Below, piece by piece: positions 11,890-53,880 of a DNA stretch of 64,000 nt. A program made the position numbers and the translations under genes. Under the pieces are notes generated by a model, which had not been told where the DNA came from, did no database searches, and worked only from the letters and a program-made list of their open reading frames with translations. How positions within the stretch are numbered: the first letter of the stretch is position 1; each line of letters begins with the position of its first letter. Source of the DNA: Maylandia zebra (lineage: Eukaryota; Chordata; Actinopteri; Cichliformes; Cichlidae). Location: NCBI RefSeq assembly GCF_041146795.1, contig NC_135188.1, positions 2,758,419 to 2,822,418 on the forward strand, written 5' to 3'.

Positions 11890-12305
11890 TGCAGCGTTTT
11901 TCTTTTTACAAGTGTTTTTCTTTTTGCAGCGTTTTTCTTTGTGCAGCATTTTTCTTTTTGCAGCGTTTTTCTTTGTGCAGTGTTTTTCTTTTTACAAGTG
12001 TTTTTCTTTGTGCAGTGTTTTTCTTTTTACAAGTGTTTTTCTTTTTGCAGCGTTTTTCTTTGTGCAGCATTTTTCTTTTTGCAGCGTTTTTCTTTTTGCA
12101 GCATTTTTCTTTTTGCGGCATTTTTCTTTTTGCAGCGTTTTTCTTTTTGCAGCGTTTTTCTTTTTGCAGCGTTTTTCTTTTTGGATGTGTTTTTCTTTTT
12201 GCAGCATTTTTCTTTTTACAAGTGTTTTCCTTTTTGCAGCATTTTTCTTTTTGCAAACGTTTTTCTTTTTGCAGCATTTTTCCTTTTGCAAGTGTTTTCT
12301 TAAGT
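11890..12305 (+). repeat. 17-18-bp minisatellite (gcagcgtttttcttttt)
   Basis: About two dozen tandem units of gcagcgtttttcttttt with variants (tgtgcag, acaagtg) run inside a dispersed repeat whose arms are recognisable at 11810-11885 and 12305-12345. Long overlapping open frames on both strands (Phe/Cys-rich on one, Lys-rich on the other) are by-products of the repeat unit and are not genes. Confidence 0.95.
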
Positions 12306-12349
12306 TGCAGTCCGTTTGGCCTCTCAGGGCCACCATAGAAAGCCTTTTT

Positions 12350-15607: not shown

Positions 15608-18506
15608 TCACTGATGGTTTTGGATGAACGTGGCTGTGTCCGTGTGGCCATTGCCGCGCGCGAGCTGCTCGGCGGTGAGTCCGTCATTGTTGCGTACGCC
15701 GCGATTCTCGGTGTATCCAATGAGCAGCCTGACAACCTCCAGGTGACCCTTACTGGCGGCCAGGTGCAGCGGAAGGTTACCTTCATATGGAGTTATAGGT
15801 CAATAAAAACCAGGTGCGAGAAGAAAACAAAACAGAAGTAAATCAAATCATTTAATTCCGTACCTCTTTCATCTGCGATGTTAACGTCGGCCCCATAGTT
15901 TAGCAGCACGCGCACAGAATCCACGAATCCTTCACGAGCGGCATCGTGGGTCACGGTGAGACCGCAGGAGGGATCTGGCACATTTGGATTTGCCCCCGCT
16001 TGCAGCAGAGTCTCAATGACCCGGGAGTCCCCCAACTTCACTACCTGCACACACACAGCATGGAGGGAGAGAGAGGATGGATGCGGGAGATAATTTAGGA
16101 GAAGAAGAAGCTTTAAGGAGCTGCCCAGGGTGTGCCTGGCGATTATCATTTTTATATTTAAATATTAAATTCATCCCATGACACCAAATCCCAATTTAAT
16201 GCATTTAATTCTCAATAAATGTATTGCTATTAATTCATTGGCCCCGCATTGGCCCCGCCTCTCCTCCTGACGTTTCTTGTCGTCACAGGGAAAATCTGCG
16301 CCTGCCATTGGACAGCAGCATCAGCGGACCTGTTTCTATTGGTGGCAGACAGGTAAGGACTGCGTCATACAGATAGGTGAAAAACATCTTCACCAGCTCG
16401 TCTGGACTCGTGCATGTCAGCATGTATGAATTTCAAAGTTACTATGCATAATTATGAACTCGCGAGCACACGATATGTTGGATGAGCGGTCAACGAGGAG
16501 GAGCTTCCTCTCTGAGTGGACCGTTCAGCTGCAGGCCTGCACCCAATATGATCGTTCATATTAAACCTCGTGTGACACGCAGACAGTGCACGAGCAAAAA
16601 CAACAACAAAAAAGCACGTTTAAAATCAGATCCAAGCAGGGCACGGGCTGCTAATCTGGCAAACCGGGCATTTTTCACGTTGGGCTGACGGACTTTTGGT
16701 TCGCTGCGCACAGGCCTAACAAGCACTGACAGCAGCCCATTGGTTCATTTTCATGAGACTGGAGTTCCCACTTAAATGTCTTCGCTACCTCCGCTAAAAA
16801 CAGGCCTTCTGGTCAAACTGCTGCACATGATTATTTGCCTTTCTGAACAGGTTTGCTCTTAAAGGTAACTCCATCCTGGAAGAATTAATTTTAATCAAGC
16901 AAGCAAGCAATTAAACTAGATATGTATGGATTTCAAAATCTTGTTTGGTTTTCAAATGTAATTTTTTCAGTGATATCATCTTTAATAGCAGGAAATTAAT
17001 TAAGCATCGAATTGTTGTTTTTTTCTTCATTTTTTCAATATTTTTCTAGTAACTTATATTTGACACGAGCATAAAAAATGGAAAATTCTGTTTTTGTAGT
17101 GTCAAGAGATTTATTCTAAAGACACTTCTTCAGCTTAGAGTCAGAGAGTAGAAACACACACGCTGCAGTTTTTACTTGCAGGGCAGAGCGCTCACACCAA
17201 AGTGGGGGCCCTGTGATGTGCATGCTCTGTTCTTGCACTTGTCTTTATTTATACACAAGAAAGAAAAGTAATACAATAATGAATACATTTGTTCAGTGGA
17301 ATGTTGATACGCGAGCATGTGCGTATGTGATTGTGCGTGTGTGTTAGAATGTGGGAAGCAGCCCTTTTTCCTTTTTCCTTGTTTGCTGTAGACATGGGCG
17401 GGTCCTTTGTCTGTGTGCCTCATGCTTCACGACTCTGCTTTCTTTTCTGTGCCCTACTTTATGATGAAATGCAGCTGCTACTTAAAAAGTTATCACTAAA
17501 ACAAACAAAAACAAAACTCAGACTAAGACTTTTTTTCCCCAAACATGGTGTTGGATAGATACATAAAGGATCTGTTCAGACCTCTGCCCACAACCATAAA
17601 CCAGTAAATACTTATTCTTTATTTTCCGCTTCTTGTAAAATTAAGAGACTTGAACAATTTATATATTTTGTCCTAAAGCAAAAAATGTACATCTGAATAA
17701 ATCCAGGTTCTTTTTAACAGCTAACACCCTCACTCACCATTTCCTTAACACCACCATTTTGCTGCTCCTCAGCTCCATTGACAATTTCAGACTTTAATGT
17801 TGTCTCGGATTTGCTGATTTCTCTTAATTACAATAATATGAACACAAGTTTATTCTTTACTTCATGTGATAAAAAAAAAAAAACTACAGCTCTTTCTGAG
17901 TCAAGTACAAAATCTGCATTTGAAAAAGAAATTGTGAAACTAAGGAAGTGATAACAGAACATCTTATTACTCCATAAAACACACTCATGCACATACATAT
18001 GTATTTATATTAATCTATAAATGTATTAAAATCTGATAGTAAATCATGAATTTCAGCTTTTTAGACTTTTGGTAAACTGTTCATCTTTTTCACTACACTT
18101 AAATCTATTTTGGAGAGTCCAAACTTATAACTGCCACATACAGATTTCTGCACTTCAAAAAATATTTACATCGATCTGAGACGATTGTATTCAGTATAAT
18201 GATGACATTATCGAAGCTGGTGGATATTTGAAGAGTACATGTGAGGAGGCCTCAGCCTCTAACACAAAGCACTAAAACAAGGAAGTAAATCAAGCTGCTA
18301 GCAAGCAAAACAGACTGAAATCGTCCAAATATGTTTAAAATCACTTTGGAAAAAAGCCAGTTCAAACGGTTTTTATTACTTACCTGTATTGCAGTCCTAT
18401 TAAACACATTTTTAATATTTACATCAGCTCCATTTTGCAGTAAAGTTATGATTTCTAATAGATTTCCAGTTGCACAGGCATTGCAGAGTTGGTCAGAGAG
18501 ACTCAT
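15608..18506 (-). CDS. cdkn2c: CDK4/6 inhibitor p18-INK4c type (ankyrin repeats)
   Basis: Three coding exons read leftward: 18506-18384, 16044-15864 and 15780-15608 (123, 181 and 173 nt), giving 158 residues. INK4 proteins bind CDK4/CDK6, block cyclin D binding and hold cells in G1. The frame shows ankyrin repeats: NACATGNLLEIITLLQNGAD, VVKLGDSRVIETLLQAGANP, THDAAREGFVDSVRVLLNYG and GNLPLHLAASKGHLEVVRLL. A fifth repeat, NNDGLTAEQLARGNGHTDTA, closes the protein. The VxKLG start of exon 2 and the GNLPLHLA repeat favour p18 over p15/p16/p19. The first in-frame ATG gives MSLSDQL. Introns are 2339 and 83 bp. The acceptor of exon 3 (…tatgaag) has a weak pyrimidine tract. Human p18 is 168 residues. 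The gene lies directly downstream of duplication copy B. Confidence 0.92.
16235..16560 (-). promoter_or_regulatory. CCAAT/GC-box cluster in cdkn2c intron 1
   Basis: ATTGG (CCAAT on the minus strand) occurs at 16237, 16248, 16317 and 16338, with gccccgcc GC boxes at about 16242 and 16252. A fifth ATTGG is at 16739. The cluster lies 0.2-0.3 kb upstream of coding exon 2 in the direction of transcription. CDKN2C in mammals is known to give a long and a short mRNA from separate promoters, so an internal promoter is plausible here. This is inference from motif density. Confidence 0.45.
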
Positions 18507-21900: not shown

Positions 21901-22045
21901 CTTTAGTCAGATTCAAAGACAGAGCCTTCTCTTTTGGCTCTCAGCGAAGGCGGTCGCACTTTTCTCCTCTCCTGCCCTTATCTTCCCTGCTTAGCTTCTT
22001 ATGTCCTCCCTATTGTCCACTTAAAATATGTTTACATAACTATTT

Positions 22046-23491
22046 TTGCATTTGTTGCAATTTCAGCTGTCCTCTTGGCCAGATTTAAAGTCAACAATAA
22101 CTTTTTTTAACTGCATAAATAAAGGATACATAAAGTCACTGCCAAAAACTGATTGCGGCTTCTACCTTGTTACAGGAATGTTGTTTGTTGCTGGATATTC
22201 TGTGGTCTTAGTTTTACTTGACTTGTCTGCTGCTTTTGACACGGTTAATCACAACATTCTTCTATCAAGATTGGAACATGTTGTTGGTCTCAAAGGTACG
22301 GTTTTATCTTGGTTTAAATCCTATCTCTCAGAGAGGTCGTTCTCTGTTGCTATGGGGCAACACTCCTCGGCTTCTGCCCCTATTTATTGTGGTGTGCCTC
22401 AAGGGTCCGTGCTCGGTCCTGCTCTTTTCTCTTTGTACATGTTGCCGTTGGGATTAATTTTTAGAAAACATAACATCTCCTTTCACTGTTATGCCGATGA
22501 TATCCAGATTTATTTACCTTTGAAATCTGATGTGACTGCTTCTTTGCAACCTCTGTTCAACTGTTTGCATGAAGTAAAAATTTGGTTATCACATAATTTT
22601 CTTACATTGAACGAGAATAAGACTGAAATCATAGTCTTTGGTAGTCACACTCCGCTAGACCAGTTAGCTGACGCCCTAGGCCCTCTCGCTAGCCATCTTT
22701 CGTCCACTGTAAGAAACCTCGGAGTGTTCCTGGATGGCTCTTTTAAACTCGAGAAACAGGTGTCCACTGTGGTAAAAAACAGCTTTTACCAGTTGCGTCA
22801 GATTTCCAAAGCAAAGCCGTTCCTTCCTTTAAAAGATCTTGAAAAGCTTATCCACGCATTTATTACATCCAGATTGGACTACTGTAACTGCCTCTACTCG
22901 GGCCTCCAACACTCCTCTCTTTGCCGGCTTCAGTTAATTCAAAATGCAGCTGCGCGTCTTTTAACAGGTACGAGAATTCATGAACACATAACTCCAATTT
23001 TAGCCAAATTACATTGGCTCCCTGTTAAATATCGTATAGATTTTAAAATTCTTTTGTTCACTTTTAATATTTTGAATAATTTAGCGCCCAGTTATCTTTC
23101 TGATTTACTCCATTCATACAATCCCAACAGGGCACTTAGATCATCCAACCATAGGCTCCTAGCACAACCTAGGACTCGAATGAAGTCGAGAGGCGACCGG
23201 GCCTTTGCATCCGTGGCACCCAGACTCTGGAATAACCTCCCCGTTCATATTCGCACTGCCGAGTCTATCCAGTCTTTTAAATTACGTCTTAAAACTTATT
23301 TTTTTACTTTGGCTTTTGATTCTGTCTAGTTGGCTGTTTTAGCTTGTTGCGTTGTTACCTATTGTTTGTTGTCCTCTTCTATTGTTTGTTTTAACTGTCT
23401 CATGTTTTTATTGACTGTGAAGCACTATGGTCAACACTGTTGTTTTTAATATGTGCTATATAAATAAATTTTGATTTGATTTGATTTGAAA
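22046..23491 (+). mobile_element. 5'-truncated L2-type LINE with 427-codon RT frame
   Basis: The open frame at 22046-23329 enters the reverse transcriptase domain at [20 protein letters not shown] and continues with [20 protein letters not shown] and the catalytic YADD (FHCYADDIQIYLP). The C-terminal region is intact (…RLRLKTYFFTLAFDSV-like end). The 3' UTR ends with a ttgat-type microsatellite tail at 23472-23490, typical of L2. The first about 45 codons are not RT-like and belong to flanking DNA, so the element is truncated at its 5' end. Confidence 0.9.
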
Positions 23492-30729: not shown

Positions 30730-33700
30730 TTTTTTAAGACCTGGCAACCCTTTTTTGACCATGTTCAGACTTTGCGGTCTCGCAACGCTCCCAGGGTCCG
30801 GGCTGTGAGGATTATGGCAGTGATGACTTTTCCCAGGAGAAGCTGGGACCCTGTTTACTAGAAGGTTTTAAAATTTCTGTACTTTTAGGTGACAGGAGAC
30901 ATGTGGCCTGGTCAAAACACAGAGAGCTGCACTCTAAAAGATCTTTAAATATAGTAAACATACCTTGTGTGCCACAGACTGCTCCCAAACACGAGGGGAC
31001 AAGTAATACCTCTAAAACACTTAAGTTGGCTTTATTAAACATTAGATCTCTAGCTGGGAAAACATTTTTAATTAATGATTTAATCACTGAGCACAGCCTT
31101 GATTTTATGTTTTTAACTGAAACTTGGTTGGACCAAAGTAACAGTGGAGCTGTTCTCATCGAGACGACCCCTCCTAACTACAGTTTTATCAGTGAGGTCA
31201 GGGCGAGCAGGAGAGGAGGAGGGGTTGCTGTCTTATTTAATGAATCATTTCAATGTAAGCAGCTATCTCCTGGAAGTTTTCAGTCTTTTGAATATGTGGC
31301 TTTACAGCTGAAGGCCCCATCCAAACTTGTGTTTCTTAATGTTTACAGGCCTCCCAAATACTGCACAGACTTTTTTAATGACCTCAGTGAACTGCTGTCT
31401 GTGATCTGTGTTGATTTTGACTGTGTAATTATTCCTGGGGATTTTAACATTCATGTGGACAACCCTCAGGACAAAGGGACTAAAGACCTGAGTAACACTC
31501 TGGGCAACTTTGGGCTGACTCAGCATGTAACAGAGGCCACACATAATAGAGGACACACTCTTGACCTACTGATCTCCAAAGGCCTGAGCATTTCAAAGGT
31601 TACTGTGTCTGATGTGGGCCTGTCTGATCATTACTGTGTTTTCTTTGAAAGTAAAATCTCAGCCCACACAAATATATCAACAACAGTGATCACAAAACGG
31701 TGTATAACTGAACACAGTAGTGCAATTTTTAACCAGGTCTTCCCATTAACACCTGACCTGCCCAGAGGGTCAGTCAATGAGCTCGTCAATAGCTTCAATG
31801 CTAACATGTTAAATGTAATGGACACTATTGCTCCCATTAAGGTGAAGGTTATCTCTGGAAGGAAAAAGTCTCCATGGAGAAACTCCACACTGGTGAAAAA
31901 TGAAAAAAAGAGAGTGTAGGAAAGCTGAGCGCAGATGGAGAAAAACAAACCTCCAGGTTCATTATGACATTTATAAAGAGAAACTTCACAATTATAATTT
32001 ACAACTGAGGAATGCAAGGAGGTCCTACTTCTCTGACATCATCACTAAAAACAGCCATAATGCTCGGGTCTTATTTTCTACAGTTGACAGGCTAACAAAC
32101 CCTCCTGTGTCAGTGGCAGCTGAACTTCATTCGACCATGGCCTGCAATGACTTTGCCAAATTCTTCACTGAAAAAATCCAAAAAATTAGACAAGCAATTG
32201 GTACATCAACAGCAGATCCAGGATATGTACTGTGTCCACCAAAAAACTGTTTAAACACCATGAAACAGTTTCAACCTATTAACAGCAAAGACCTGGAGGA
32301 CATCTTAGGTCAACTGAACTCCTCCTCCTGCTGTTTAGATGTCCTGCCAACAAGTTTTTTCAAAAAGGTCTCAAAGACTTTAGAGTCAGACCTGTTACAG
32401 ATCGTCAACTTTTCTTTATTATCAGGTGTGTTTCCAGAATCACTAAAAACTGCTGTAATCAAACCTATACTGAAAAAGGACAATCTTGACAAGACACAAA
32501 TGAACAACTACAGGCCGATCTCAAATCTCCCGTTTTTAAGTAAGATCATTGAAAAAGCAGTTTCTCAACAGCTCAGTTACTTCTTAAAACAGAATAATTG
32601 CTACGATGCCTTCTAGTCAGGTTTTAGACAGAACCACAGCACTGAAACCGCTCTGACCAAAGTGTTTAATGACATATGTCTGAATACAGACAGTGGAAAA
32701 ATGTCAGTCCTAGTTTTACTGGATCTCAGTGCAGCATTTGATACAGTTGACCACAACATATTACTCAAACGACTGGAGAACTGGACAGGTCTTTCAGGAA
32801 CTGTACTAAACTGGTTCAAAACATACGTAGAAAACAGGAAATACTTTGTATCAATAGGTAACTTCACATCTGAGCAGACAAGTATCACATGTGGAGTTCC
32901 CCAAGGTTCCATCTTGGGACCCCTTCTGTTTAACATCTACATGCTCCCACTGGCACAGATTATAAACAACAACAAAATAAACTATCACAGCTATGCAGAT
33001 GACACACAAATATATATCACAATGTCACCAGGAGACCGAGGCCCTGTACAGGCTCTTGGTAAATGCATTGAGGAAATCAATGACTGGTTGTGCCACAATT
33101 TTCTCCAGCTAAACAAAAACAAAACTGAGGTAATAGTCTTTGGCGCCAAAGAAAAACGATTACAGGTCACCAGAGAACTTCAATCTATACATCTAAAAAC
33201 CACAAACCAGGCGAGAAATTTGGGTGTAGTGATGGATGCAGACCTAAACTTAGAAAAACACATTAAGACAATAACAAAGTCAGCTTACTATCACCTCAAG
33301 AATATATCAAGGATCAAAGATCTGATGTCTCAACAGGACCTGGAAAAACTAGTCCATGCATTCATCTTTAGTAGGCTTGATTACTGTAACAGCATCTTTA
33401 CAGGTCTACCTAAAAAATCAGTCAGACAACTACAGCTCATTCAGAACTCTGCTGCTCGAGTCCTCACTAAGACCAAGAAAGTGGACCACATCAGTCCAGC
33501 TCTGAGGTCCTTACACTGGCTGCCTGTCCGTCAGAGGATAGACTTTAAAGTTCTGATGCTGGCCTATAAAGCTCTGAATGGTTTAGGACCAAAATACATC
33601 AATGACCTCCTGACCCAGTATGAACCATCCAGATCCCTCAGGTCATCTGGATCCGGTCTTTTATCAGTTCCCAGAGTCAGAACCAGACACGGAGAAGCTG

Positions 33701-34662
33701 CATTCAGCTTTTATGCTCCTTATATCTGGAACAAACTCCCAGAAAGCCTCAGATCAGCTGAAACACTCAGTTTATTTAAATCCAGGTTGAAGACTCACCT
33801 GTTCTCAGCTGCATTTGAATAAAGCACCAAATCCACACTTTAAGCTTAAATTTCAAAACTTACATTTAACTACTGATTTTATCTACTGTTCTGATTTTAT
33901 CTGTTTTGATTTTATATACTGTTTTGTTTGTTTGTTTGTTTGTTTGTTTGTTTGTTTGTTAATTAGTTAGTTAGTTTATTTGCTTGTTTTAATCAATTTT
34001 AAATCATGCTTTTTATTTGTTCTTGTTTCTAATGTCTCTGTAAAGCACTTTGAATCACCTTGTTGTTGAATTGTGCTATACAAATAAACTTGCCTTGCCT
34101 TGCCTTGCCAATTAGCCAGGTCAGAGTTTATTATATTTTATTTTATCTTATGTTTAAGTAAGATGTTTAAGTTTAAGTATATGGACTCTGTTGTGCCTGC
34201 GCCTTATGATGGCATTTACTTACCTATTTTATACATATTTCTTTTCTCTTACAGAATTGACTTATCTCTACAACTAAGCTGACCACTCATTATGTTTGTG
34301 TTTTGTGTTTTGTTTTTTTGTTTTTTTGTTTTTTTGTTTTTTCTTGGTTTGTGTGTTTTGTTTTTTCTGTGCCTGTGTGGGGGTGTGGGCTTTGAAACTC
34401 TCCACATCTCTCTTGTACACTCAGGAACTGTTATCTTGTACTCCAGGGTTTGCTACTCGTATTATTAGATTGGACCCTTTCTTTTTTCTTTTTGTACACC
34501 CACTGGTACTCCTATAATTATGAGGTGGGAGTGTATGTTTCATATTGTTTTATGTTCTTCAAAAAGAAAACGGCATATTGTTCAATTTGTCTTTTGTAAA
34601 AATGGATGCAGAAACTTTAATAAAAATATCTGAGGAAAAAAAAACAAAAAACAAAAAACAAA
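30730..34662 (+). mobile_element. Composite retroposon block with A-rich tail
   Basis: It is bracketed by a 13-bp direct repeat aaaactcctactt (30717-30729 and 34663-34675) and ends in an A-rich tail (34636-34662). These are signs of a target-primed insertion. Inside are about 160 bp of 5' sequence, a whole L2-type LINE (to 34111) and a 550-bp 3' part with pyrimidine-rich sequence and aataaaaatatc just before the tail. Whether this is one element or a LINE nested in an older A-tailed element is not settled. Confidence 0.65.
30903..33822 (+). pseudogene. L2-type LINE ORF2 with one frameshift and one stop
   Basis: Endonuclease is at 30903-31919 (LALLNIRSLAGKT, LFLTETWLD-like FLTETWLDQS, IIPGDFNIHVDNPQ, SDHYCVFFES). 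Linker and early RT are at 31900-32616 (NARRSYFSDIITKN, NNYRPISNLPFLSKIIEKAV). RT and C-terminus are at 32662-33822 ([49 protein letters not shown]). The first two pieces differ by one frame near 31900. An in-frame TAG at 32614-32616 splits the second and third. It ends with a (ttgcc)n tail at 34087-34111. Otherwise it is the most complete LINE in the window. Confidence 0.9.
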
Positions 34663-39142: not shown

Positions 39143-42100
39143 ATGAGCAGGTTACGTTCAGCGATGCAGAAAGGCAAGCGAGCCGCAGTGGAGGTGGTAG
39201 AAAGCGCATTACCGAAGCGGAAGAAGTCAAAGACAGCAGTGAAACAAGGTAGCAACCATGCTGCTGTTACTTAATATCTGCGCGTCGTAGAGAGATCTAC
39301 ATTTCAGCTTTCATTGCATACTTGAAAGTAAACACATCGCTTTCCCTGATGCTAAAAATGATGCTAAACTGTTTAAGCAGTGCCAGAATGTTTTAGCAGC
39401 TTCAGAATTTACAGCAGTACAGATGCGTGCACAGCCAAACCGGGTCCTGCAGGCTCGTGTTGGGTAAAGTTTGATACTGCTGCAAGAAATGGCATGAATG
39501 TCTGATGGGACTTGTTTCAATCTAATAATCATATTTATTATAGTATACAATAGAAACGTTTAATAACGGCATAATAGGCAGATATGATTTCAGTGAGATT
39601 TCTTTAGTCTGAGTGAGAATTGTGTTTTTGGTCTTCCAGAGGAAACCACAGATGCTTCCTCACCATCTCCGCACCACACTTTCCCTGATCCTGCTGATGT
39701 CGTCCGCTTTCGCTCTCAACTCCTTAACTGGTACAACAAGGAGAAGAGAGCGCTGCCATGGAGGACTCTGGTAAAAAGAAACTATATTATACTACTTCGT
39801 TGTCATCATTAATATACATTAATGTAACATGTGATATAGAAATAAGTTTGGTTCAAAGTTAACGTTTCAGCCATGTCAGTGTTCTGGTGGTTTCTGTCGT
39901 ATTTTTAGTTTTTTTTCTCAGAGGAAATTTGTAGCTTCGCCTTTCTTTACTTTCTACAGGCTATAACAGAGTCAGACATCAACATCAGGACATATGGAGG
40001 TGAGAAGAGTTGGGTGCATTCTTGACAAATGTACACATCTTTAACTGCTGCTTAAAGTGATGTGCTTTTTTCAGTATGGGTTTCAGAAATAATGCTGCAG
40101 CAGACTCAGGTTGCCACAGTAAAAGACTATTACAACAAGTGGATGAAGGTGTGCATCGTGTAGCTTTCTTGTGCACTGGACTTCTTGTGACACTGATTTC
40201 ACTGTGTGCAACTTAAAGCTTCTATTTATTATGCTGCAGAGGTGGCCCACAGTCCAGGAGCTTGCAGCTGCCACTCTAGAGGTGATGCCTTAAAGCAGCA
40301 AATGCACATACAATGATTTTAAAATGCTGATGTTTTTAATTTGGATGTACTGATTGTGTTGATTGGTAGGAGGTGAATCAGATGTGGGCAGGGCTGGGCT
40401 ACTACTCCCGTGGAAGAAGGCTGCATGAAGGAGCGCAGAAGGTCTGATTGTGTTCTTCCCTTTATCTAACACTTCTAAACAGTCTGTCTGCAGAGAAGTC
40501 TCACATCTTCTGTGTTTGGGTGTTCATTATATGTTCCTTTAGGTGGTGTCAGAGCTAAAGGGACAGATGCCTCAGACGGTTGAGAGCCTGCTCAAACAGC
40601 TGCCTGGAGTGGGACGCTACACTGCTGCAGCTATAGGCTCTATTGCACAGGGGCTGGTGGGTCATTAGACATGGATATCTGCAGCAGAGCAAAGTCTTAG
40701 GTACTCTCTTATTAATCACTCATAGTGATGTGATCTCTCTTGTGTAGGTTACCGGAGCTGTGGACGGTAATGTCATTCGGGTGCTGTGTCGCCTGAGGGC
40801 GATTGGAGCTGACAGCACAAGTCCAGCAGTGACAGAGGCACTTTGGTGAGATTCACCTCCAAACCAAAATAATATATAAACGGAAAGCTTTTGAATGTTT
40901 TTATTTCTCTTGTGTTTAAGGGATCTGGTCAATTTGCTGGTGGATCCTGAGAGACCTGGAGACTTTAACCAGGCCATGATGGAGCTGGGAGCACGAGTCT
41001 GCACCCCTAAAGGGCCCCTGTGCAGTCAGTGCCCCGTGCAGTCTCACTGCCACTCTTATCACAAGGTTGGGATGATTTCAAATTGCAACTGGTACCGATA
41101 ATGCTAACACAGATTAGAAAAGATTCTCTCCAGTTAATGGCATGAGGCATGTTGTGTGTCTGCACAGGTTCTTGTCAAACAAGAGCAAAACTCTAAGAAG
41201 CTTTTGGGGAAGCTGGGTACAAAGACTTCAGAGCTGCCTGACATAGAAGACTGCAGTAAGTCTCCTCCCCTTCAGACCTCTCAGATGTCTGTATAGTCCT
41301 GAAATTAAAGTATCTTTCTATATGTGAAGCGAACAGTGTAACATGTCCCCTGTGTCCCTCGGAGCCCTGGGATGATGAGCTGGGTGTTCAGAACTTCCCC
41401 AGAAAGCCGTCGAAGAAGCCCCCCCGGGTGGAGCGAACTCTTACCTGTGTGGTGAAGAGGCCTGGAGATGACGGGGAAGAGAGGTTCCTGCTCACACAGA
41501 GGCCAAGCAAAGGTTAGCACTGATTGCAACATCAGCTTGTGCTGGTCAAGCGTTGGATTCAGAATGTGCACAATTGTATCCTGATAACGAGACTGAATCA
41601 GACTGCTTGAATCACTGAGAAAACTGTTAGTGTTAGGAGCAGTGTTGGGACTAACGCGTTATTAAGTAACGCGTTACAGTAACTACGTTATTATTGTGGT
41701 AACGAGCACGGTAACTAGTTATTATGCCAAAATCAGGAACGCGTTACTCGTTACTGGGATTTAGATAGGGTCGTTATTCGTTACTTCGAGTGGTGGCTAT
41801 CGCGGAGCTTCCACAGATTCAGTAACATTAGCAAGTGGTGGAGGCAGCAGGTGGATGAAGGAAAAGAGACCCGAGGCGGCCGCCGGTCCAAGTGTGAACT
41901 GAACTTCAGGTAAGAAGTTATGACCTGCAGTCTCTCTGGGTCAGATATGAACCAAGTTTAGGTGGAGTTTATTTTCATTATTCTGACTTTTTCCGTACTG
42001 CGTGCTAGCTAGCATGACAGAGTTTCTATACAGCTGGGTGGGTGCTATGTTACTGATGTTGAACTTTATTTTGTTCATAAGTTATTAGAGTTGCCAACCG

Positions 42101-45100
42101 TCCCGTCTGGTATTCAGAGAAAATATTACGCGTTTCTTATTGAGGTGAAAAGGAACAGTTTGTCCCGTAATTCAGCTACAATGAAAAAGGCACAAAGCTG
42201 GAGTTATTCTGTCTTTGCTGCACAGCTGCCTCTTCTTCTTTCATTCTCCCCCCTCCCTCTCCTCTTTCTACTTCAATCATGAAACTGATCAATGATCAGC
42301 TGATCGTCTCTCTTGTTTGTTTATCGCCCAATTTGCGCCGAAAGAGGAAACCAGTGGATGTCGCGCTAAACAGCAGCAGCACGTTTAAGCTTGATCAGCT
42401 GTTGTTAGAATTTATTTAATATTAATTTCTAGTATCAGCTGATGTTTGCTGGAGCCACAGCTGTAAAGCTGCTGGTCAGGATGGTTTGGATATGTGGTGA
42501 GAGGGAAACATGAAGATGAAACCAGGAGATGTCCTTACTGAACCATCAGAGCTGAACAGGTGATGGAGAAACAGGTTTACCTTTTAGGTGACATGAATGA
42601 GTTGAAGTTATGAACTGTTTCTGAGAGACAAATAACCCCAGGATCCTTTTTTAGGTAGCTGACATCTGGTAACTGTGCAGGGGCGGGTCTAGCAAAGTGT
42701 TGCCAGGGGGGCATGTAGGGCATTAACAGGGAAAGGGGGGCACAAAGAAATACTTTTCTTTCTTATTCTCATTTAAAATGTCTCGCTTTTAAAAAATAAT
42801 TATCTGAATCTTACAACAAACGATTGATAGATTGATGCATATATACCATCAGAACAGTGAACATCACTGTCACAACTGTTTATTTTCACTCAAAGGCTTT
42901 ATGATTTTTCCTATAATGGTGGGCCGGTCTCTAGTCAAAATGTCCGGGCCAATTTTCTGTCCCAGTCCAGCCCTGTATGCAGCTCATCTGCAGTCTGGTG
43001 TTACCTACATCTTCCTATTCAGAAGGCAGAATTTCAGAGTTCTGAGTACAATCAAAGCACCACGACTGCAGTTTTTGTGTTGGATGTAAAAGGCGCACAT
43101 GACTCTGTGACGTAGGCTAGAATCATGGCAGCAGTCAATGACGGTCCAGGCGTGGGATTTCTCTCGTGGAAATATGCACATTATCTTTTCCTTTCTATTG
43201 GTCGGTGGCACAGTGCACTGTGGCAAGTAAGCAAGCTAGAAGGCTGGCAAAGTTATGGAAGCAACACATTAACAAGAGAATTCTGAGTAAAACCAAAGTT
43301 ACTTTCCCTAGTAACTAGTTACTTTGAAAGTAACGAGTAACTTGAAGTAACTGAGTTACTTTTGAGAGAAGTAACTAGTAATGTAACTAAGTTATTATTT
43401 TAAAGTAACTTACCCAACACTGGTTAGGAGTGATGCATTGGTCTGGATGCAGGCTATAATTTTGGTGGATGTCTCAGTCATTGTGCAGCTTGATTCAGAC
43501 ACACATAAAAAAAACGGTAAAAGTAAGTAAATCTGTCTGGGTGGGCTGCAGGTTTGTTGGCAGGCTTGTGGGAGTTTCCAAGTCTTCTGCTTGAGGTTGA
43601 AAACTCTGAGAAGAAACAGAAGGGGGCGCTCTGCGAGGAAATCAGCAGAATACTGGGAACGCATTTAACTGAAAACCTGTTCCAGTATGTGGGAGAGGTA
43701 AGCTGGATATTTAGACCCTCTGTCATCTGCCTTTAATAGGAAATAAGCTGTTTGTGTAACTCTGCTGCACTGGTTGGCTGTTTGCAGGTGGTCCACATCT
43801 TCTCCCACATCCACCAGACTTATGTGGTTTACAGTGTGTGTTTAAAGGAGAGGGACACACACACAGAGACTGAAAACACACAGTGGCTCACTAGATCTAC
43901 TCTACAGGGAGCTGCTGTGTCCACAGGACTGAAAAAGGTTTGTGGTTGTTTTTTTATGCACTTGTCTGAGTGAATTCTGTCTGTGTAGCAATAAGAGTGC
44001 ACTTGATTGTCACTTAGAGAAAGCATGCTATAACAACCTGCCTTTACCTTTCCAAATATATATATTGGATATAGTGAAAACGGGGCTGCAGTGGCTCGTG
44101 CTGTCAAAGTTCATTTTCACTATGCAAACAGATTCAGATCATCACCTGCTGATCCTTAACATTGACCACAAACCTTTTCATAAAAGGCAAAAACAAAGTA
44201 GCTAAACAGAACCTAAGTCGCAGTGTGTAGCTTCCCTTAATACTGGCAACCCACACACTGAGGTACCGCTTGGTGGTACAAGAACAAAAGCTGCGGTTCG
44301 GTCACAACTTTCCGTGACTTCATTGATTACAAAACCCCAAACAAATAAGCAAGAACGCCCCCCCCCCCCCCCAAAAAAAACAAACAAACAAACAAAAAAA
44401 AAATACAAGAAAAGAAGAGCCAAGCAGATAAATCTGAGTAGAACAGAGGGTGGGAGAAGAAGATTGTGTTGGTGTGTTTTCAATTTGCTGTGTGCTGGTA
44501 CATGATGACACGAGCCACAGTTCAGGGGTTCCTCCTCTCTGCTCTGACAGTCTGACACTCGGGGATTAATTCACAAAGCACATCCTGTGATTATCCACAA
44601 AAATGCACTCTTCATTAAAAAGCTTTTATTGGCTCATCTCTGTGAAAAGCCTCAACATGAAAGTCAGTTTGACACATGCGGCGTTCTTACTGCAGTTTTG
44701 AGCTCCATGGTTCAGTGCAGATGTTCAAAGGGGAAGTCAGACAAGTTTAAATCAGGTTTTTTTACTGGTGGAGTCAGATAAAGAACGTTTCCTGCTTTGT
44801 TCTGCTACTACACACAAATGTTTTGGGTCAAAGGCTGATCGAATAAAACTGAATGTAAAGCCATAAACAAATAGTCCCCCAGTAATGTCACAGAAAATAC
44901 ACATACATGTGTAAAATGTCGTCAAGATTGTCTCACGTTTCTGTAACGTATTTAAAAAAGCATCTAATTGTGCTTGTGTGGTCTGTGTGAAACATCAACA
45001 TTAAATCTCCTGCAGATTGTGAAGCTTTATGATTCTGTGGACAGTCTGAAGGAAAAAACACAAAGGTGAGCCTCGACATTTGTAAAACTGCTCAGATAAT

Positions 45101-45176
45101 TTATTATGTAATCCTACCGTAACTGTTTGTCTCTGCTCGTCTTAGGATGGAAAAAGGCAAAAGGACTCGGGAATAA
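39143..45176 (+). CDS. mutyh: Adenine DNA glycosylase MUTYH
   Basis: MUTYH removes adenine mispaired with 8-oxoguanine in base excision repair, in nucleus and mitochondria. Fifteen exons: 39143-39248, 39640-39770, 39960-39999, 40075-40148, 40240-40281, 40370-40441, 40543-40656, 40748-40845, 40921-41065, 41168-41255, 41330-41512, 43552-43697, 43788-43937, 45016-45065, 45146-45176. All introns are GT-AG and phases are consistent, giving 489 residues. Visible features: [10 protein letters not shown] with catalytic Glu97; helix-hairpin-helix LPGVGRYTA (175-183); catalytic Asp199 in [10 protein letters not shown]; the 4Fe-4S cysteines 253, 260, 263 and 269 (C-x6-C-x2-C-x5-C); linchpin cysteines 303, 309 and 312; and the C-terminal NUDIX-like domain with GLWEFPS and FSHIHQTY. 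The start MSRLRSAM matches an upstream Met of the human protein; Met at 39164 is an alternative. The C-terminal frame is discussed under findings. Confidence 0.95.
41640..43422. mobile_element. hAT-type element in mutyh intron 11
   Basis: The 1783-bp element has ends cagtgttggg… and …cccaacactg and a perfect 8-bp target duplication gttaggag (41632-41639 and 43423-43430). Subterminal gtaacgcgtta and gtaact motifs are repeated at both ends. No transposase frame is visible, so it is non-autonomous. It makes up most of the 2.0-kb intron between exons 11 and 12. Confidence 0.95.
44200..44480. repeat. Low-complexity stretch in mutyh intron 13
   Basis: It contains a run of C (44357-44372) followed by A-rich sequence (44373-44402). 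Apparent frames here are artefacts. The rest of intron 13 (43938-45015) shows nothing recognisable. Confidence 0.6.
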
Positions 45177-45289
45177 TGGATAACAAGAAGCCGCAGAGCT
45201 CTAAAAAGAACAAACTCAGTGCAGCGAGCAGCGGCAGACAGCTCTCCCTCAGTTCCTTCTTCAAGACTGTGAAAGAGGAATGTTGTTAG
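45177..45289 (+). other. mutyh: Out-of-frame mutyh tail with PCNA-binding box
   Basis: Starting within exon 15, the frame shifted by one base from the spliced mutyh frame runs open from 45146 to a TAG at 45287-45289. It encodes a Lys-rich stretch, then RQLSLSSFFKTV. QLSLSSFF is a textbook PIP box (Q-x-x-L-x-x-F-F). Human MUTYH ends with a comparable PCNA-binding motif (QQVLDNFF). The spliced frame instead stops at TAA 45174-45176. Confidence 0.8.
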
Positions 45290-46166: not shown

Positions 46167-49100
46167 ATGGATTCCGCACGGCAAACTGTCCTGTCTGTAC
46201 ACCAGAGGATAGTCGACAATGGAGGTATGATGTTGATTATTTTCCCACATGTGTGTTACGCTTTTATTGCTTTTTCTTTTTGCATCCCTGTGTCTCGTGT
46301 GGTTGTTGGGCAGATTTTCAGTGTAAAAGGAAACCTTGTCTTAGTCTGTTGAATGAGTGGGAAGATGCAGATGTGCTCCAGAGCTCGGCTTCACAGTGAC
46401 TGCTCTGTGGTTTTTGCCACATGACTGTCTGAATGAGCGTGACACTTTTTATCTTGTTATTGTCTTGTTACAATTATCTTTGTAATAGGCATAGAGGAGC
46501 AGCAGGCATCCAAGCTCACTCACCAAGAATGTTTATGGAGAAAACTAGTTGCTTAGCTGCTTGTTCATAAATGCTTGAAAACAGCACATGTACATGTACA
46601 CTCACTGGTGCTCCTGTTCAACCTTATTTGTTAGAGAAATATTTAATCAGCCAATCACATGGCACATGACATTGTTATATTTGCCACACAACTGTATTTA
46701 CATTTGATAGAGAATGGACCAAAAAAAAGAAGAAAGTATCCAGTGAGCAGCAGGTCTCTGGCTGAAAAATGCCTTGTTGGTGTCAAAGGTCAGAGGATAG
46801 GAAGGCAACTGTAACTCAAAAACAAAAAATAAAAATCCCTTGGAGCAGATGGGCGCCACGCCTGTCAGCTAAGAACGGGAAACTGAAGTTACAGTTTGCA
46901 CGCTGAACAACAGAAGACTGGAAAAATGCTGCCTGTACTGATGAATCTGAAACATGCATGAATACCATGGATGCATCCGTTCTTGTATCAACAGTTCATA
47001 CTGTTGAAGGTGGTGTAATGGTGTGTGGGGGTCAGTGTTGGTCAAGTTACTTGAAAAAAGTAATTAGTAACTAATTACTGATTACTCCCCCAAAAAAGTA
47101 ATCCTGTTACTTTACTGATTACTTATTTTCAAAAGTAATTAATTACTTAGGTTGTAAATCGTGTTTTTAAAAAGTAACTGAGTAGGTGATAAAGTGATAG
47201 ATCTCTCAGCCCAATTCTACTTTTTCTACATAATCCATCATACAAAATGTAATCAGATGGAAAAGTCTCTTTTTAAAACTTGTTTTATTAGTTTTAATCT
47301 TTTAACTTTATGCATCAAGCAAAAATTTAATTATATGCAACATTCTCTGACTGGAAGAAATTAGTTTAACATTTAAACCTATTTTCTGCACATTCCAGCA
47401 CATAAAATAAAATATTTTTTGTGTTTACACTCAGTCTTTCAAATAGATGCAAGTAAAACACAGCAGAAAATAAATAAAATCAAAGACTCAGCGGTCCTGT
47501 TGCTCTATTTTCACCTGTAAAGCAGGAGTGGGGCAGGCGGAGGTTTACCCTGGTGCAGGTGTGCCGCGGTCAGTGGAAGAATCCGCGAGTTTCTCTGTGA
47601 GTTTCCCATTACGTCATAGCTACTCGGTGCTTGTTGGAAGTTTAGGGGTTTTTGTCGCTGTAAAAAGAAGTTTGCTTCCCACGCACAGCGGACACTAATG
47701 TTTTTGTCACTTTTTATGGAATCAAACTCAAAGTAAGGTCAGTACTTCCACGCTTTAAACGCTGCACGCTCATACTCTCTCTGCACTCGATATATGATCC
47801 ACTGTTGATCTGCACACAGCTGTTGTCACTAACGTCGCACTCGCTTACGTCACTGTCATGAGACATTCTTGCAAAGAAATCACAGTTTTAGTAACGCAGT
47901 AACGCAGCGTTCCTACGGGAAAGTAAGGGTAATCTAATTACCGTTTTTGCGATAGTAATCCCTTACTTTACCCGTCACTTTAAAAAGTAATCAGATTACA
48001 TGCCCATCTCTGGTGGGGGTATTTTCATGGTCCCTTAGTACCAAGTGATCATTGTTTAAACAGGTCGCTGTGCTCAAAGGGCCTTCACAGTCACCAGATG
48101 TCACGAGAGCACCTTTGTGGTGGGTTGGGAGAATGCAAGCGGCTGTGTGATGCTGTCATGTCAACATGGACCAAAATCTCTGAAGAAGGTTTGCAGCACC
48201 TTGTTGAAATCTGTGTTATGAAGAATTGAGGCAAAAGGTGGCCCAGCACTGTACCTAATCAAGTGGCCGGGGAGTGCATATTAACTAAGTTGCAGCAAGG
48301 TTCACTTTTTTGCATTTCCTGAGCAGCCTTGAGACAAAAACCACATCTCAGGAATCATTGGTGAGAAATTCGTGAGATCACAGCAGCTCCAATCATTATT
48401 TTACTTTGGATCTTTCCTTTAACACATTTGTTCATTTTTAAATTAAACCTAACCTGCAATTCCTGCTGTCCAGACAAGAGAACGGACCCCTGGCTGTTGG
48501 TCTACTCCCCAGTCCCGGTGACGCTCATCTTCCTGCTTTATCTGTTTGTAATCTGGGCCGGCCCTCGTCTGATGAAGCACAGGGAACCCTTTGAGCTCAA
48601 AGTGGTCCTCATTGTTTACAACTTCGCCATGGTTGGCCTGTCTGTGTATATGTGCCATGAGGTGTGTTTAAGCTGCTTCTTTGTTCTGTTATAACAGGGA
48701 AACTAATTAACCAACCAGCTTATGAGCAAAGCAATGATGTGTTTGAACAGTGGCACAATGTCTCTGTACTTGCATCTGTGCACCAACCTAATGAATTCAA
48801 ATATAGAGTTCAGCTGTGATTGAAGAGAAGATTTATAGATTCAGTTCAAAGGGTACTGAGACCCGTGTCCAATCTGTGCTTTGCAGGTTGGGTTCAGGTC
48901 AGGAAGAGATTATAGCGCTATAGGCATCAGACTACTACATGCTCTTTTTATCAGCAGTAACATCATCAATAAACACCAGTGAACCAGTTTAACTCGCGGT
49001 CGTACATGTTTTTGTCACAACATCCCCTCCAACATGTTTGGCTGATAATGTGGTGTGTTTTGGATCTTGAATCCTTCTTTTCTTCCTCTCTTTCTGCTAA

Positions 49101-52100
49101 ACGTTCGTCTTAGTTTTGTCTGTCCAACGAATCTTGTTCCAGAACTAGTCCGTCTAGATGTTTGTAGCAAAGCCTCATCTGTCTTTACTATTGTTGGGTT
49201 CAATTTAATTCAATTCAATTTTATTTATATAGCGCCAAATCACAACAAAAGTCGCCTCAAGGCGCTTCATAGATACAGAGAAAAACCCAACAATCATATG
49301 ACCCCCTATGAGCAGCACTTTGGCGACAGTGGGAAGGAAAAACTCCCTTTTAACAGGAAGAAACCTCCAGCAGAACCAGGCTCAGGGAGGGGCGGGGCCA
49401 TCTGCTGTGATTGGTTGGGGTGAGAGAAGGAAGACAGGATAAAGACATGTTGTGGAAGAGAGACAGAGGTTAATAACAGATATGATTCAGTGCAGAGGTC
49501 TGTTAACACATAGTGAGTGAGAAAGGTGACTGGAAAGGAAAAACGCAATGCATCATGGGAATCCCCGGCAGCCTACGTCTATTGCAGCATAACTAAGGGA
49601 GGATTCAGGGTCACCTGGTCCAGCCCTAACTATATGCTTTAGCAAAAAGGAAAGTTTGAAGCCTAATCTTGAAAGTAGAGATAGTGTCTGTCTCCTGAAT
49701 CCAAACTGGAAGCTGGTTCCACAGAAGAGGGGCCTGAAAACTGAAGGCTCTGCCTCCCATTCTACTTTTAAATACTCTAGGAACAACAAGTAGGCCTGCA
49801 GAGCGAGAGCGAAGTGCTCTAATAGGGTGATATGGTACTACAAGGTCATTAAGATAAGATGGGGCCTGATTATTTAAGACCTTGTATGTGAGGAGCAGGA
49901 TTTTGAATTCAATTCTGGATTTAACAGGAAGCCAAAACAGGAGAAATCTGCTCTCTTTCTAGTCCCTGTCAGGACTCTTGCTGCAGCATTTTGGATCAGC
50001 TGAAGGCTTTTCAGGGAGTTTTTAGGACATCCTGATAATAATGAATTGCAGTCGTCCAGCCTGGAAGTAATAAACGCATGGTTCACGAGAAAGACGCTGT
50101 AATTTTAAGATTAGACTCAAAACGTTACTTTTTGATGAAGCTTGTAGTTGGGGTTAGATCAGGTGACCCTGAACGATCCTCACTCACGCTGCTGTTGTCT
50201 CAGACGGCTGCAGTACTTCATGTGATGCACTGAGCGCTTCTTCACCACTCCCCTCTTTTCTCTGCCCACGTGTCTTTACACGACTGCAGCGTGTCATTCA
50301 GTTTTTGTCCTCTCTTCCTTGGTCTGTGTTTGTACTGTCTCCACATGCGCTGCCCCACCCTGAGCCTGCTTTAGGCTTCTTCCTGTTAAAGGGAGTTTTT
50401 TTTAGGTTTTTTTGTTTTTTGTTCTGTGCTTACTCAGCGGGTGTCACTTGATTGTTGGGTTTTACCTTAAAAACAGTGATCACATCATATTAGAACAAAC
50501 AATGACAAGAAGAGTGGACACAGAGGAGAATATAGATAACAATAACGGAAACACATCAATACAGTAATACAGTATTCGATATGAGCCAGTATCACAGAGA
50601 GCAGGAATGTAGTCGCTGCTGTCTGTTAATGATGTGCGGATATGTCTACAGTTCTGTATATTAACATTTACAGTTTTCACTACTTTTTAAACGTGTTTTT
50701 AAAGGATAATTTCGAGTCTAGTAGCACTCCCAAATTCATAAATTCCTCAACATGAATTAGTTCTTGTTATTCGGGTATTGTCATTTTCATATTGGTCATA
50801 AAAAATGAGGATGTGAGCCAAACGTCGTCGGCTATCGGACTACTTAAAAAACAGAGGAACATGTTTAAAAAAATTTATTTGTTCTTCTTGAAGTGCTACT
50901 GCAATATCCTCATTAACCTCTTTAACTACAGCTGGAAATCTTAGTGTCAATAACCTCAATTTTCTAATCCTTGAAAATCCATTGTGGTGGTGAACAGATG
51001 CAAACTTTCCAAATACTTTGATAAACCTGACTGCATGACCCAAAGCACACATGTTAAAATACTTCTGTACAGTATTTAATTTATTAATAACTGTGTTTTA
51101 GAAAGTCTCGTTTCATGAGATATGTGAAGATGAATAACTGCCTGATTATTTTCAGTTCCTTGTTACATCCTGGCTCCTTAACTACAGCTTGCTGTGTCAG
51201 CCTGTAGATTACAGCACCAGTCCGCTGGCAATGAGGGTAAGAAAGTTATGCATTGAGTATATTTTGTGGTTTGTTTGTTGTGTGTGTGTCTGTTGAGAAG
51301 TTTGATGCATATCATACATACCTGACAAACAGTTTATACAGAAGTTACACTTTTTCCCCAGATGGCCAGAGTGTGCTGGTGGTTTTTCTTCTCTAAGGTC
51401 ATAGAGCTCAGTGACACGGTATGTATCTACACAGCCCAACCTAAGCTGATGCACTCTTTCCTGATCCTGTGCCACAGCAGCATCGCCTCCGTACCAACTT
51501 CTAAACCTTCCCTTTAAATGTTGCTTGTATCTCCTGATTGTTTTCCATCCACTCCACCCTGCTCTTCTCCACCTCTTCACCTTTTCTTCATCCTCCATCA
51601 CCTTTCTGCTCTATCAGCCTGTCCATTGCCACTGGAAGCGGGAAAAGCTCAGAGTGTAACTGAACCTTCATCTTAAACCCATCTGTCACTCTCAGGATCA
51701 ATGCTGAGACCCTCTTTGGAGGGTCCGCCACATTAGGTGCTGTTCAAAAACAACGAGATTAAAAAATGTTGTAAATGTTTGTTGGCCCGTAGACATTTTC
51801 AAAGAATAGAACAGCAGGTGGGGATGCAGTCGAGCAGACAATCGTTGCTGTAAGGCTAAAGCAGAGCGTGGGGTTCAAGTCCACACTGTCACCATTTTTT
51901 TAAAGACTAGCAAGTGGGAGCATAGAGAAATTTTTTGCATATGCGATGGATTGATCTTAACATAAGCTCCAGGAATATATCATTCCACGTTGCTACTGGT
52001 GCTGACTGTAAGTTTTTGTTTCTGGCAGAGAAAGGTGAGGATGTTCCAAAGCTTAAAACGATTAACATTGTGCTCTTCATCACATACGTCTCTGCTACTC

Positions 52101-53880
52101 TGTGTCCTCATGCAGTACAGCTCTTCTTTTGCGACAGTCTTGTATGCACCTAATACCCCAAAGGCACAGTCGTAGTCTTAGGAATTTCCTTCTCTTTTTT
52201 CCAGTAATCATACAATGTCTCACTTTCCAAGTAAACCTCACAGCTCCTCTTACACGTGTCCATTCTATCTGGACCAACCGGCTTTGCGTTTTCTTTCAAT
52301 ACTCACTGCTGCCCTGACTCTATGATTTAACTTTCTCTCATTTGCTCTTATTTTCTTTATTCTTCATCCCTGAAAATTACTCCTTTTGATTTTACCCATC
52401 TGTCACCTCTCAGTATGTTTCAGTATTTATGCTTCCTGTTCAGTTCCTTTCCTTCTAGCCCTTAGTACAGGCACTTTTCTCCTACCTTATGCTGTGGTGT
52501 CTGTGTCTGCTAAAGCTGCGAAGAAGAAAAAATACTTTTGTCTGGTGCTTTATTCAAGGAATAGATCACCATAGCAACTAGCACCTCATGTTTGATATGT
52601 CATATCTTTTCTTTCCTCACATATGATGTAGCTACAGATGGGGATCATTCACGTTAGGCGACTGCATAAACTTCAATTCAATTCAATTTTATTTATATAG
52701 CGCCAAATCACAACAAAAGTCGCCTCAAGGCGCTTCATAGATACAGAGAAAAACCCAACAATCATATGACCCCCTATGAGCAGCACTTTGGCGACAGTGG
52801 GAAGGAAAAACTCCCTTTTAACAGGAAGAAACCTCCGGCAGAACCAGGCTCAGGGAGGGGCGGGGCCATCTGCTGTGACCGGTTGGGGTGAGAGAAGGAA
52901 GACAGGATGAAGACATGCTGTGGAAGAGAGACAGAGGTTAATAACAGATATGATTCAATGCAGAGAGGTCTGTTAACACATAGTGAGTGAGAAAGGTGAC
53001 TGGTGACTGCATTGCATATACATTGCTAGCTGCTAGCTGTAGCTCTTTGCTCATTTCTCTGTGTACAGCTCCTGATCATCCTGCGGAAGAAGAACAATCA
53101 GCTGACGTTCCTTCATGTTTACCATCACAGTACGATGATCTTCAACTGGTGGTCGGGAGTAAAGTATGTGGCAGGTGGACAGTGTGAGTATTCTCATACT
53201 GAAATATTTTGTCCTCAGATTTGTGACCTCATTCCCCCAAACAACCATAAAGTCCACTAAGAGTAAAATTAGCTCCACTGCTTTAACTAGCTTCTCCCTT
53301 TAGGGGTCGCCACAGTGGCTCATCTACCTCCACCTCCCCGATCTCTGGCATCCTTCTCTGTCACACTAGTCCTCTTAGTGGTCTTCCTCGTTCCCGCTTG
53401 CCTAACAGCTCCATCTCCATAATCCTTTTTCAAATATATATTTAAACCAGCTTTTCTGTGTGGAAAACCTTTTTCTGTTGTTTCCTGCAGCGTTCTTCGT
53501 CGGCCTGATCAACACCTTTGTCCACGTTATAATGTACTCTTACTATGGCCTGGCTGCACTCGGCCCTCACATGCAGAAATACCTGTGGTGGAAACGGTAC
53601 CTGACATCTCTGCAGCTGGTGAGCGTCTCCAGCTCTGTAGTGAGATATTCAAAAATGTGCGCACCAGCATATTCGAATCATTAAACCGATCTGAACTGTG
53701 TCGCCTCTCCAGGTGCAGTTTGTCCTGATCGTTGTGCACACAGCGTACAACCTGTTCGCAGATTGCAACTACCCTGATGCCATGAATGCTGTGGTGGTTG
53801 GTTACTGCATCACCCTCATCATCCTCTTCAGTAACTTTTATTATCAGAGCTACCTCAGGAAGACGAAGAAGCAGAAATGA
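46167..53880 (+). CDS. elovl8: Very-long-chain fatty acid elongase, ELOVL8-like
   Basis: ELOVL enzymes catalyse the condensing step of fatty acid elongation in the ER membrane. Seven exons: 46167-46224, 48474-48661, 51156-51236, 51362-51418, 53069-53183, 53491-53618, 53713-53880. All phases fit, giving 264 residues. Signature motifs: REPFELK and [32 protein letters not shown] with the histidine box at 144-148; [19 protein letters not shown]; and Gln-rich LTSLQLVQF. Several hydrophobic segments (e.g. 29-46) fit a multi-pass protein. It ends KTKKQK, a KKxx-type ER retrieval signal. The length and motifs fall between ELOVL1/7 and ELOVL4. I favour ELOVL8, a group described from teleosts; ELOVL4-like is the alternative. 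The gene lies 0.9 kb downstream of mutyh in the same direction. Confidence 0.88.
46560..48285 (+). pseudogene. Tc1/mariner-like relic in elongase intron 1
   Basis: It starts near tcagccaatcacatggca, a 5' region I know from a widespread teleost mariner-type element. It has degraded transposase sequence (ctgatgaatctga; cagtcaccagatgtca…gagcacctttg; tcaacatggaccaaaatctctgaag) and ends with gtacctaatcaagtggccgg. There are many stops. A hAT element (47033-48012) splits it. Confidence 0.75.
47033..48012. mobile_element. hAT-type element nested in a Tc1 relic
   Basis: The 980-bp element starts cagtgttggtcaag and ends catgcccatctctg, with a perfect 8-bp target duplication gtgggggt (47025-47032 and 48013-48020). 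Subterminal aagtaattagtaac-type repeats occur near both ends. It contains no long frame. Confidence 0.93.
49201..50080 (-). mobile_element. L2-type LINE 3' part in elongase intron 2
   Basis: Same family and orientation as 26045-26960: tail (TTGAA)n at 49202-49220, 3' UTR, and RT C-terminal codons ([34 protein letters not shown]). A 14-base deletion relative to the 26.8-kb copy disrupts the frame near 49934. Confidence 0.9.
50084..50465 (+). mobile_element. Related LINE 3' end, opposite orientation
   Basis: It reads ttaagattagactcaaaacg…gatcaggtgaccctgaacga…ttcctgttaaagggagtttt…gattgttgggttttacc, a diverged version of the L2 3' end. It lies head to head with the preceding fragment. Confidence 0.75.
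52674..53002 (-). mobile_element. L2-type LINE 3' end in elongase intron 4
   Basis: It starts with the caattcaattcaattttatt tail and covers only the 3' UTR. It is very similar to 26045-26380 and 49201-49530, implying recent spread. It ends 70 bases before exon 5. The rest of intron 4 (51419-52670) has no recognised element. Confidence 0.9.
53283..53440 (-). mobile_element. Small LINE/SINE 3' relic in elongase intron 5
   Basis: ctttaggggtcgccacagtg followed by stretches rich in cttcct and cagctccatctcc resembles the 3' end of a teleost RTE-type retroposon. It is diverged and its limits are unclear. Confidence 0.5.

What the first reader, a model, noticed from the sequence alone, without database searches (positions are those of the whole stretch)
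45016..45289. mutyh PCNA-binding box lies one base out of frame
With the only visible splice sites, exon 14 (50 nt) leads into exon 15 in a frame that stops after KGKRTRE. The next frame runs open through the whole exon and ends in RQLSLSSFFKTV, a perfect PIP box where human MUTYH also has one. Exon 14 contains a run of six A and exon 15 a run of five, so a one-base homopolymer error or polymorphism would explain it. If real, this allele lacks the PCNA contact that couples repair to replication.
Basis: partly seen in the sequence, partly recalled or inferred. Interest (0 to 1): 0.7.

Follow-up and report, generated by a model that had tools for sequence, protein, structure and literature searches.

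The report
Fish MUTYH tail reads out of frame
In this fish DNA-repair gene a one-base slip near the end puts the clamp-binding tail out of frame; it is either an assembly error or an ordinary truncating variant, and human reporter data suggest that losing this tail can be tolerated.

Summary
A 15-exon mutyh gene lies at 39143-45289; exons 1-13 are in frame. Exon 14 is 50 nt, and the best splice sites read exon 15 into a stop (45174-45176) after KGKRTRE. The frame one base back is open through exon 15 and holds a perfect PIP box, QLSLSSFF.

New evidence places the fault in exon 14. Of 13 introns whose human boundary I could read, 12 have the human phase. The exception is the last, because exon 14 (50 nt, human 42) is the only one of 11 compared exons whose length differs by other than a multiple of three. 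Read in phase 0 from its first base, fish exon 15 aligns without gaps to human/mouse GSKR...RKKP (modest support).

So the ancestral join was probably phase 0, and a net -1 (or +2) change sits in 45033-45065. Assembly error and real variant were not separated: no fish relatives, reads or own genome were reachable. Rescue by a cryptic acceptor at 45157 or exon-14 skipping is possible but weakly supported. Human MUTYH tolerates truncation there in a repair reporter, although other work reports that the PCNA contact matters.

The parts
39143..43937 (+). mutyh coding exons 1-13 (39143-39248, 39640-39770, 39960-39999, 40075-40148, 40240-40281, 40370-40441, 40543-40656, 40748-40845, 40921-41065, 41168-41255, 41330-41512, 43552-43697, 43788-43937), frame intact
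   Evidence: GT-AG assembly; PDB matches to adenine DNA glycosylase chains 7EF8, 7EF9 and 8FAY, E 3.4e-155 to 1.2e-151; Pfam HhH-GPD and NUDIX_4
45016..45065 (+). exon 14, 50 nt, starts phase 0, ends phase 2; frame break placed in 45033-45065
   Evidence: human counterpart 42 nt, phase 0 to 0
45053..45058 (+). A6 run in exon 14, the likeliest single place for a one-base slip
   Evidence: placement is inference
45066..45145 (+). intron 14 (80 nt), best-scoring GT-AG pair among those tried
45146..45289 (+). exon 15 (coding part); PIP-frame reading [16 protein letters not shown]...QLSLSSFFKTVKEECC*
   Evidence: compared with human/mouse GSKR...RKKP
45157..45157 (+). first exon base if a cryptic acceptor 11 nt downstream were used; it would put the PIP box in frame
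   Evidence: PWM -2.4 against 2.5 for 45146
45174..45176 (+). TAA stop of the canonical reading, in the last coding exon
45239..45262 (+). PIP box QLSLSSFF, out of frame with the canonical reading

Best explanation
The sequence carries a net one-base loss (equally, a two-base gain) in the 3' half of mutyh exon 14, between 45033 and 45065, most simply in the A6 run. It turns an ancestral phase-0 last intron into a phase-2 intron, so translation runs nine codons past the split codon into exon 15, stops, and does not read the PIP box. Shown: the frame break and the intact upstream gene. Strongly supported: the ancestral phase. Inferred: the exact base, and that the protein would keep glycosylase activity and lose its tail PCNA contact. 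Not settled: assembly error (about 0.45) or a real allele or lineage truncation (about 0.35); the confidence given is the sum of these two. The rest covers splice rescue and other causes.
For: Exons 1-13 assemble without a stop. 12 of 13 comparable intron phases equal the human ones, and 10 of 11 comparable exon lengths (fish exons 2-11 and 14) differ by multiples of three, 7 of them by zero; only exon 14 fails (human boundaries). The PIP frame from the first codon of exon 15 gives 6 of 16 identities with human and 5 of 16 with mouse at the predicted register (926 and 3,047 of 200,000 shuffles as good). Lys at +2, +13, +14, where human K509/K520/K521 would lie, occurred in 507 of 100,000 shuffles. 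The PIP box itself is non-random. Exon 14's donor is the best of 20 sites scored.
Against: No second fish sequence, read or transcript was seen. The acceptor at 45146 is the lowest of 20 in a small PWM (2.5, next 2.6), though it has 13 of 16 pyrimidines and beats the four cryptic acceptors listed. The identity block is modest: at any offset 2,677 of 20,000 (human) and 8,390 of 20,000 (mouse) shuffles do as well, and a second register, offset 6, gives 5 identities with each, equal to the mouse score at the predicted one. A longer run, C7 in exon 11, is not broken, so homopolymer error is not pervasive here.
Confidence: 0.8

Rival explanations
1. A real, possibly fixed, truncation in this fish lineage (one of the two causes inside the best explanation): MUTYH ends in KGKRTRE and has dropped the tail PIP box without great harm.
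For: The stop is in the last coding exon, so decay of the mRNA is not expected (inference; 3'-UTR introns not assessed). Human nonsense variants from codon 472 are tolerated in a reporter. The NUDIX match ends at residue 466 of 489. At recalled fish neutral rates an unused 144-nt frame could stay open for millions of years, so an intact PIP box does not prove a recent event.
Against: No relative was seen that shows it. Reviews cite loss of repair when the PCNA interface is disrupted. The PIP frame shows no decay.
Confidence: 0.35
2. The frame is restored by splicing: a cryptic acceptor 11 nt downstream (exon 15 from 45157) joins ...KEKTQR to QKDSGIMD...QLSLSSFF, making a 523-aa PIP-bearing protein, alone or as a second isoform.
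For: The +11 AG gives exactly the needed shift and an open frame. It loses only DGK, so most of the human-like block survives.
Against: Acceptor score -2.4 against 2.5, with 7 of 16 pyrimidines, and it lies behind a nearer AG. It needs both a changed intron phase and a moved acceptor.
Confidence: 0.1
3. Exon 14 is skipped in some transcripts, joining exon 13 (phase 0) directly to the PIP frame.
For: Both join in phase 0; a 510-aa protein with the PIP box results.
Against: Removes IVKLYDS; in human, nonsense variants through codon 471 score as loss of function, and that codon lies in the counterpart of this segment by my numbering (inference). Exon 14 has the best donor of 20 scored.
Confidence: 0.04
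4. Programmed -1 ribosomal frameshifting in the overlap 45033-45176 makes the PIP-bearing form.
For: The required shift is -1 and both frames are open in the overlap.
Against: 0 of 20 in-frame heptamers in the overlap fit the strict X XXY YYZ rule.
Confidence: 0.01

Closest known systems
MUTYH (human, mouse), MutY family adenine DNA glycosylase
   Same: HhH-GPD and NUDIX_4 domains; 12 of 13 compared intron phases and 7 of 11 compared exon lengths identical to human; a C-terminal PIP box (mouse tail in 7EFA, QQVLDTFF)
   Different: The last exon is read out of frame with the PIP box in this sequence; in the PIP frame 15 residues separate KKP from the box, against 3 in mouse
Human MUTYH C-terminal truncating variants (codon 472 onward, 521-aa numbering)
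   Same: Keep the NUDIX domain, lose the PIP box, stop in or near the last exon
   Different: Those are single-codon nonsense changes in human; here it is a frameshift in a fish assembly with no phenotype data
Assembly indel errors in homopolymers (general knowledge, recalled)
   Same: One-base frame break beside an A6 run
   Different: A longer run (C7, exon 11) and 795 nt of a neighbouring elovl gene are in frame

Membership tests
MUTYH | HhH-GPD glycosylase domain | tested here: met
   Pfam PF00730 E 1.9e-24, residues 95-230
MUTYH | C-terminal NUDIX-like 8-oxoG recognition domain | tested here: met
   Pfam PF14815 E 1.3e-19, residues 352-466
MUTYH | Close match to solved mammalian MUTYH | tested here: met
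   7EF8 E 3.4e-155, 8FAY E 1.2e-151 (that these are mouse and human is recalled)
MUTYH | Exon-intron phases of the human gene | tested here: met
   12 of 13 compared; the exception is the last intron, and one further intron had no boundary in what I read
MUTYH with PCNA contact | PIP box QXX(I/L/M)XXFF in the translated C terminus | tested here: not met
   Present in the DNA, out of frame under canonical splicing
Programmed -1 frameshift gene | In-frame slippery heptamer X XXY YYZ | tested here: not met
   0 of 20 heptamers
Alternative-acceptor isoform | RNA evidence for both junctions | not testable with these tools
   No RNA-seq or EST data available
Assembly error | Raw reads disagree with the assembled exon 14 | not testable with these tools
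   No reads; own-genome search unanswered seven times

The most novel reading that the evidence does not exclude
The fish gene uses two acceptors 11 nt apart (45146 and 45157) as a frame switch, making a PCNA-tethered MUTYH and a PCNA-free MUTYH with a short basic tail from one gene.
Probability: 0.05. Interest if true: 0.55.

Novelty: new member of a known kind. Interest (0 to 1): 0.25.

Why it matters
If real, it would be a natural vertebrate MUTYH without its tail PIP box, bearing on an open dispute: a human deep mutational scan finds this tail dispensable in its reporter, while other work ties the PCNA contact to repair. If an error, it is a warning that annotation of this gene would be cut short or given a false micro-intron.

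Tried and rejected
Looking for related fish: a degenerate exon-15 DNA pattern gave 0 matches in genome contigs and 0 in viral contigs. Those collections are not expected to hold fish, so this is no evidence either way. Paper searches for MUTYH with zebrafish, teleost, tilapia, cichlid or medaka terms listed, by title, no paper on a fish MUTYH tail; 20, 20 and 12 rows were shown of 49, 211 and 4,496. Searches were for human splice-variant names (5 of 5 shown) and PIP-box mutant work (8 of 50 shown); searches (tail-less isoforms, 8 of 146; assembly frameshifts, 8 of 220) gave nothing used.

A PDB search with the frame-mended fish tail alone found no MUTYH (one unrelated weak hit, eIF4B, E 0.49), and the 28-residue PIP stretch alone found none: short divergent tails look to be below that method's reach. 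With the longer +11-acceptor product the match to 7EFA ran to KKP and stopped before the PIP box. Ribosomal frameshifting was rejected for lack of a slippery site. Alternative acceptors for exon 14 itself that would give the PIP frame: none listed among those tried, 43997-45039. In a first PWM scoring the acceptor 45146 looked far below the others (2.3 against a minimum of 7.4) because the others were in their own training set; with leave-one-out it is lowest but close to the next (2.5, 2.6). The PWM is trained on 20 introns only. Dropped from the exon-length count: exon 1 (fish start codon and human exon 2 start are not the same point; difference -15) and exons 12, 13 and 15 (a human end not read); exons 12 and 13 together are 296 nt against 290 in human.

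Full report
What is there. The + strand carries a complete mutyh gene in 15 coding exons, 39143-45289. The protein matches adenine DNA glycosylase chains in the PDB with E-values of 3.4e-155 (7EF8, mouse) and 1.2e-151 (8FAY, human; species recalled) and has the HhH-GPD and NUDIX_4 domains. No species name was available; gene order and repeats suggest a percomorph fish (recalled, untested). Exons 1-13 are in frame throughout. Exon 14 is 45016-45065, 50 nt, followed by an 80-nt intron and exon 15. Canonical splicing gives 489 aa ending [15 protein letters not shown], stop at 45174-45176. The -1 frame is open from 45033 and contains QLSLSSFF at 45239-45262.

Is it chance? Unlikely. A looser PIP pattern turned up in any of three frames in 23 of 20,000 dinucleotide shuffles of exon 15. 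It also sits in the tail, where mouse MUTYH has its own (QQVLDTFF in 7EFA). PMC12000561 mentions a mouse C-terminal fragment solved with PCNA (passage seen); that this is 7EFA is my inference. For scale, the pattern occurs 10 times in six frames of the whole 64 kb, so position matters as much as the motif.

Which part is broken? Human exon boundaries can be read from published variant names: PMC6651865 Table 3 (passages seen) and PMC3397219 (passages seen; it names NM_001128425.1). On these, human exon 15 is c.1477-1518, 42 nt, and begins and ends in phase 0. Against this table, 12 of 13 comparable fish introns have the human phase; one further intron (after fish exon 12) has no boundary in what I read. 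Fish exons 3-9 equal human ones in length (7 of 7); exons 2, 10 and 11 differ by -60, +24 and -6; exon 14 differs by +8. So the deviation is confined to exon 14. Within it, IVKLY matches human VFRVY and mouse VFRMY in the canonical frame, and the PIP frame is open only from 45033, so the change lies in 45033-45065.

Does the exon 15 start agree? In human and mouse the residues at the last exon junction begin GSKRSQV and reach RKKP at +12 (for the letters, human beyond SPCSR recalled; codon 507 = c.1519). The fish PIP frame from the first base of exon 15 is [16 protein letters not shown]: 6 of 16 and 5 of 16 identities without a gap; 926 and 3,047 of 200,000 shuffles do as well at that register. 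At any register the match is not special (2,677 and 8,390 of 20,000), and offset 6 also gives 5 identities with each, so the support rests on the register being predicted beforehand. Lys at +2, +13 and +14 are the positions of human K509, K520 and K521, named as ubiquitination sites in PMC12938805 (section 24 read); 507 of 100,000 shuffles have all three. This points to an ancestral phase-0 join at the present acceptor, but the intron-phase table is the stronger evidence.

Could splicing rescue it? Of 19 donor-acceptor combinations that keep at least the start of exon 14 and put the box in frame, none of the 12 best listed outscores the reference pair (13.4; best alternative 9.4). The rescue that keeps most of exon 15 with the good donor uses an AG 11 nt into the exon (45157): score -2.4 against 2.5. 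Skipping exon 14 also joins in frame but removes IVKLYDS at the end of the NUDIX region. Neither can be excluded without RNA. A caution: the 45146 acceptor itself is the lowest of 20 in my small matrix, and the human-like block distinguishes 45146 from 45157 by little more than the Lys at +2.

Error or real? Not decided. For error: a one-base slip would fit the longest A run in the coding exons, and the PIP frame shows no sign of decay. Against: the C7 run of exon 11 and the neighbouring 795-nt elovl coding sequence are in frame, so I counted 1 break in 2,378 coding nt. An intact PIP frame is weak evidence of youth: at a recalled neutral rate of a few substitutions per site per billion years, 144 nt gain about one change in two million years.

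What would it do? In PMC11908140 (a preprint; passages and the Discussion read) nonsense and synonymous human MUTYH variants separate perfectly through codon 471, and nonsense variants from 472 on are tolerated; a PIP-box double mutant in mouse ES cells, cited there to Hirano et al. 2003 (not read), did not raise the mutation rate. The same paper notes one patient with Q473* and G368D as an apparent exception. By my alignment the fish product extends 19 residues past the equivalent of that limit (inference). Against harmlessness, PMC12938805 and PMC3584444, passages seen, cite experiments in which disrupting the PCNA contact impairs 8-oxoG:A repair. So 'lacks the tail PCNA contact' is a fair prediction for the canonical transcript, and 'impaired repair' is uncertain.

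Verdict. The finding is a one-base frame break in exon 14 of an otherwise ordinary gene, most likely an assembly error or an ordinary truncating variant. Interest is low unless reads confirm it.

Noticed in passing
41640-43422: Intron 11 of mutyh holds an insertion with inverted ends (CAGTGTTGGG...CCCAACACTG) and an 8-bp direct repeat GTTAGGAG on both sides (41632-41639, 43423-43430), as in hAT transposons (family recalled).
   Followed up: partly
46167-53880: Seven-exon elongase (ELO family, elovl) gene just downstream on the same strand, in frame, 264 aa.
   Followed up: partly
6763-9048: Long open reading frame (761 aa, minus strand) with a reverse transcriptase domain and an ALKBH8_N Pfam match. 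ORFs at 22040-23329 and 30759-33822 look similar by eye (not searched).
   Followed up: no
15793-16164: Minus-strand ankyrin-repeat ORF, resembling a cdkn2 family gene (recalled).
   Followed up: no
11582-12408: Low-complexity stretch that translates as repeated FLFAAFFF / KEKCCKKKN blocks in several frames.
   Followed up: no
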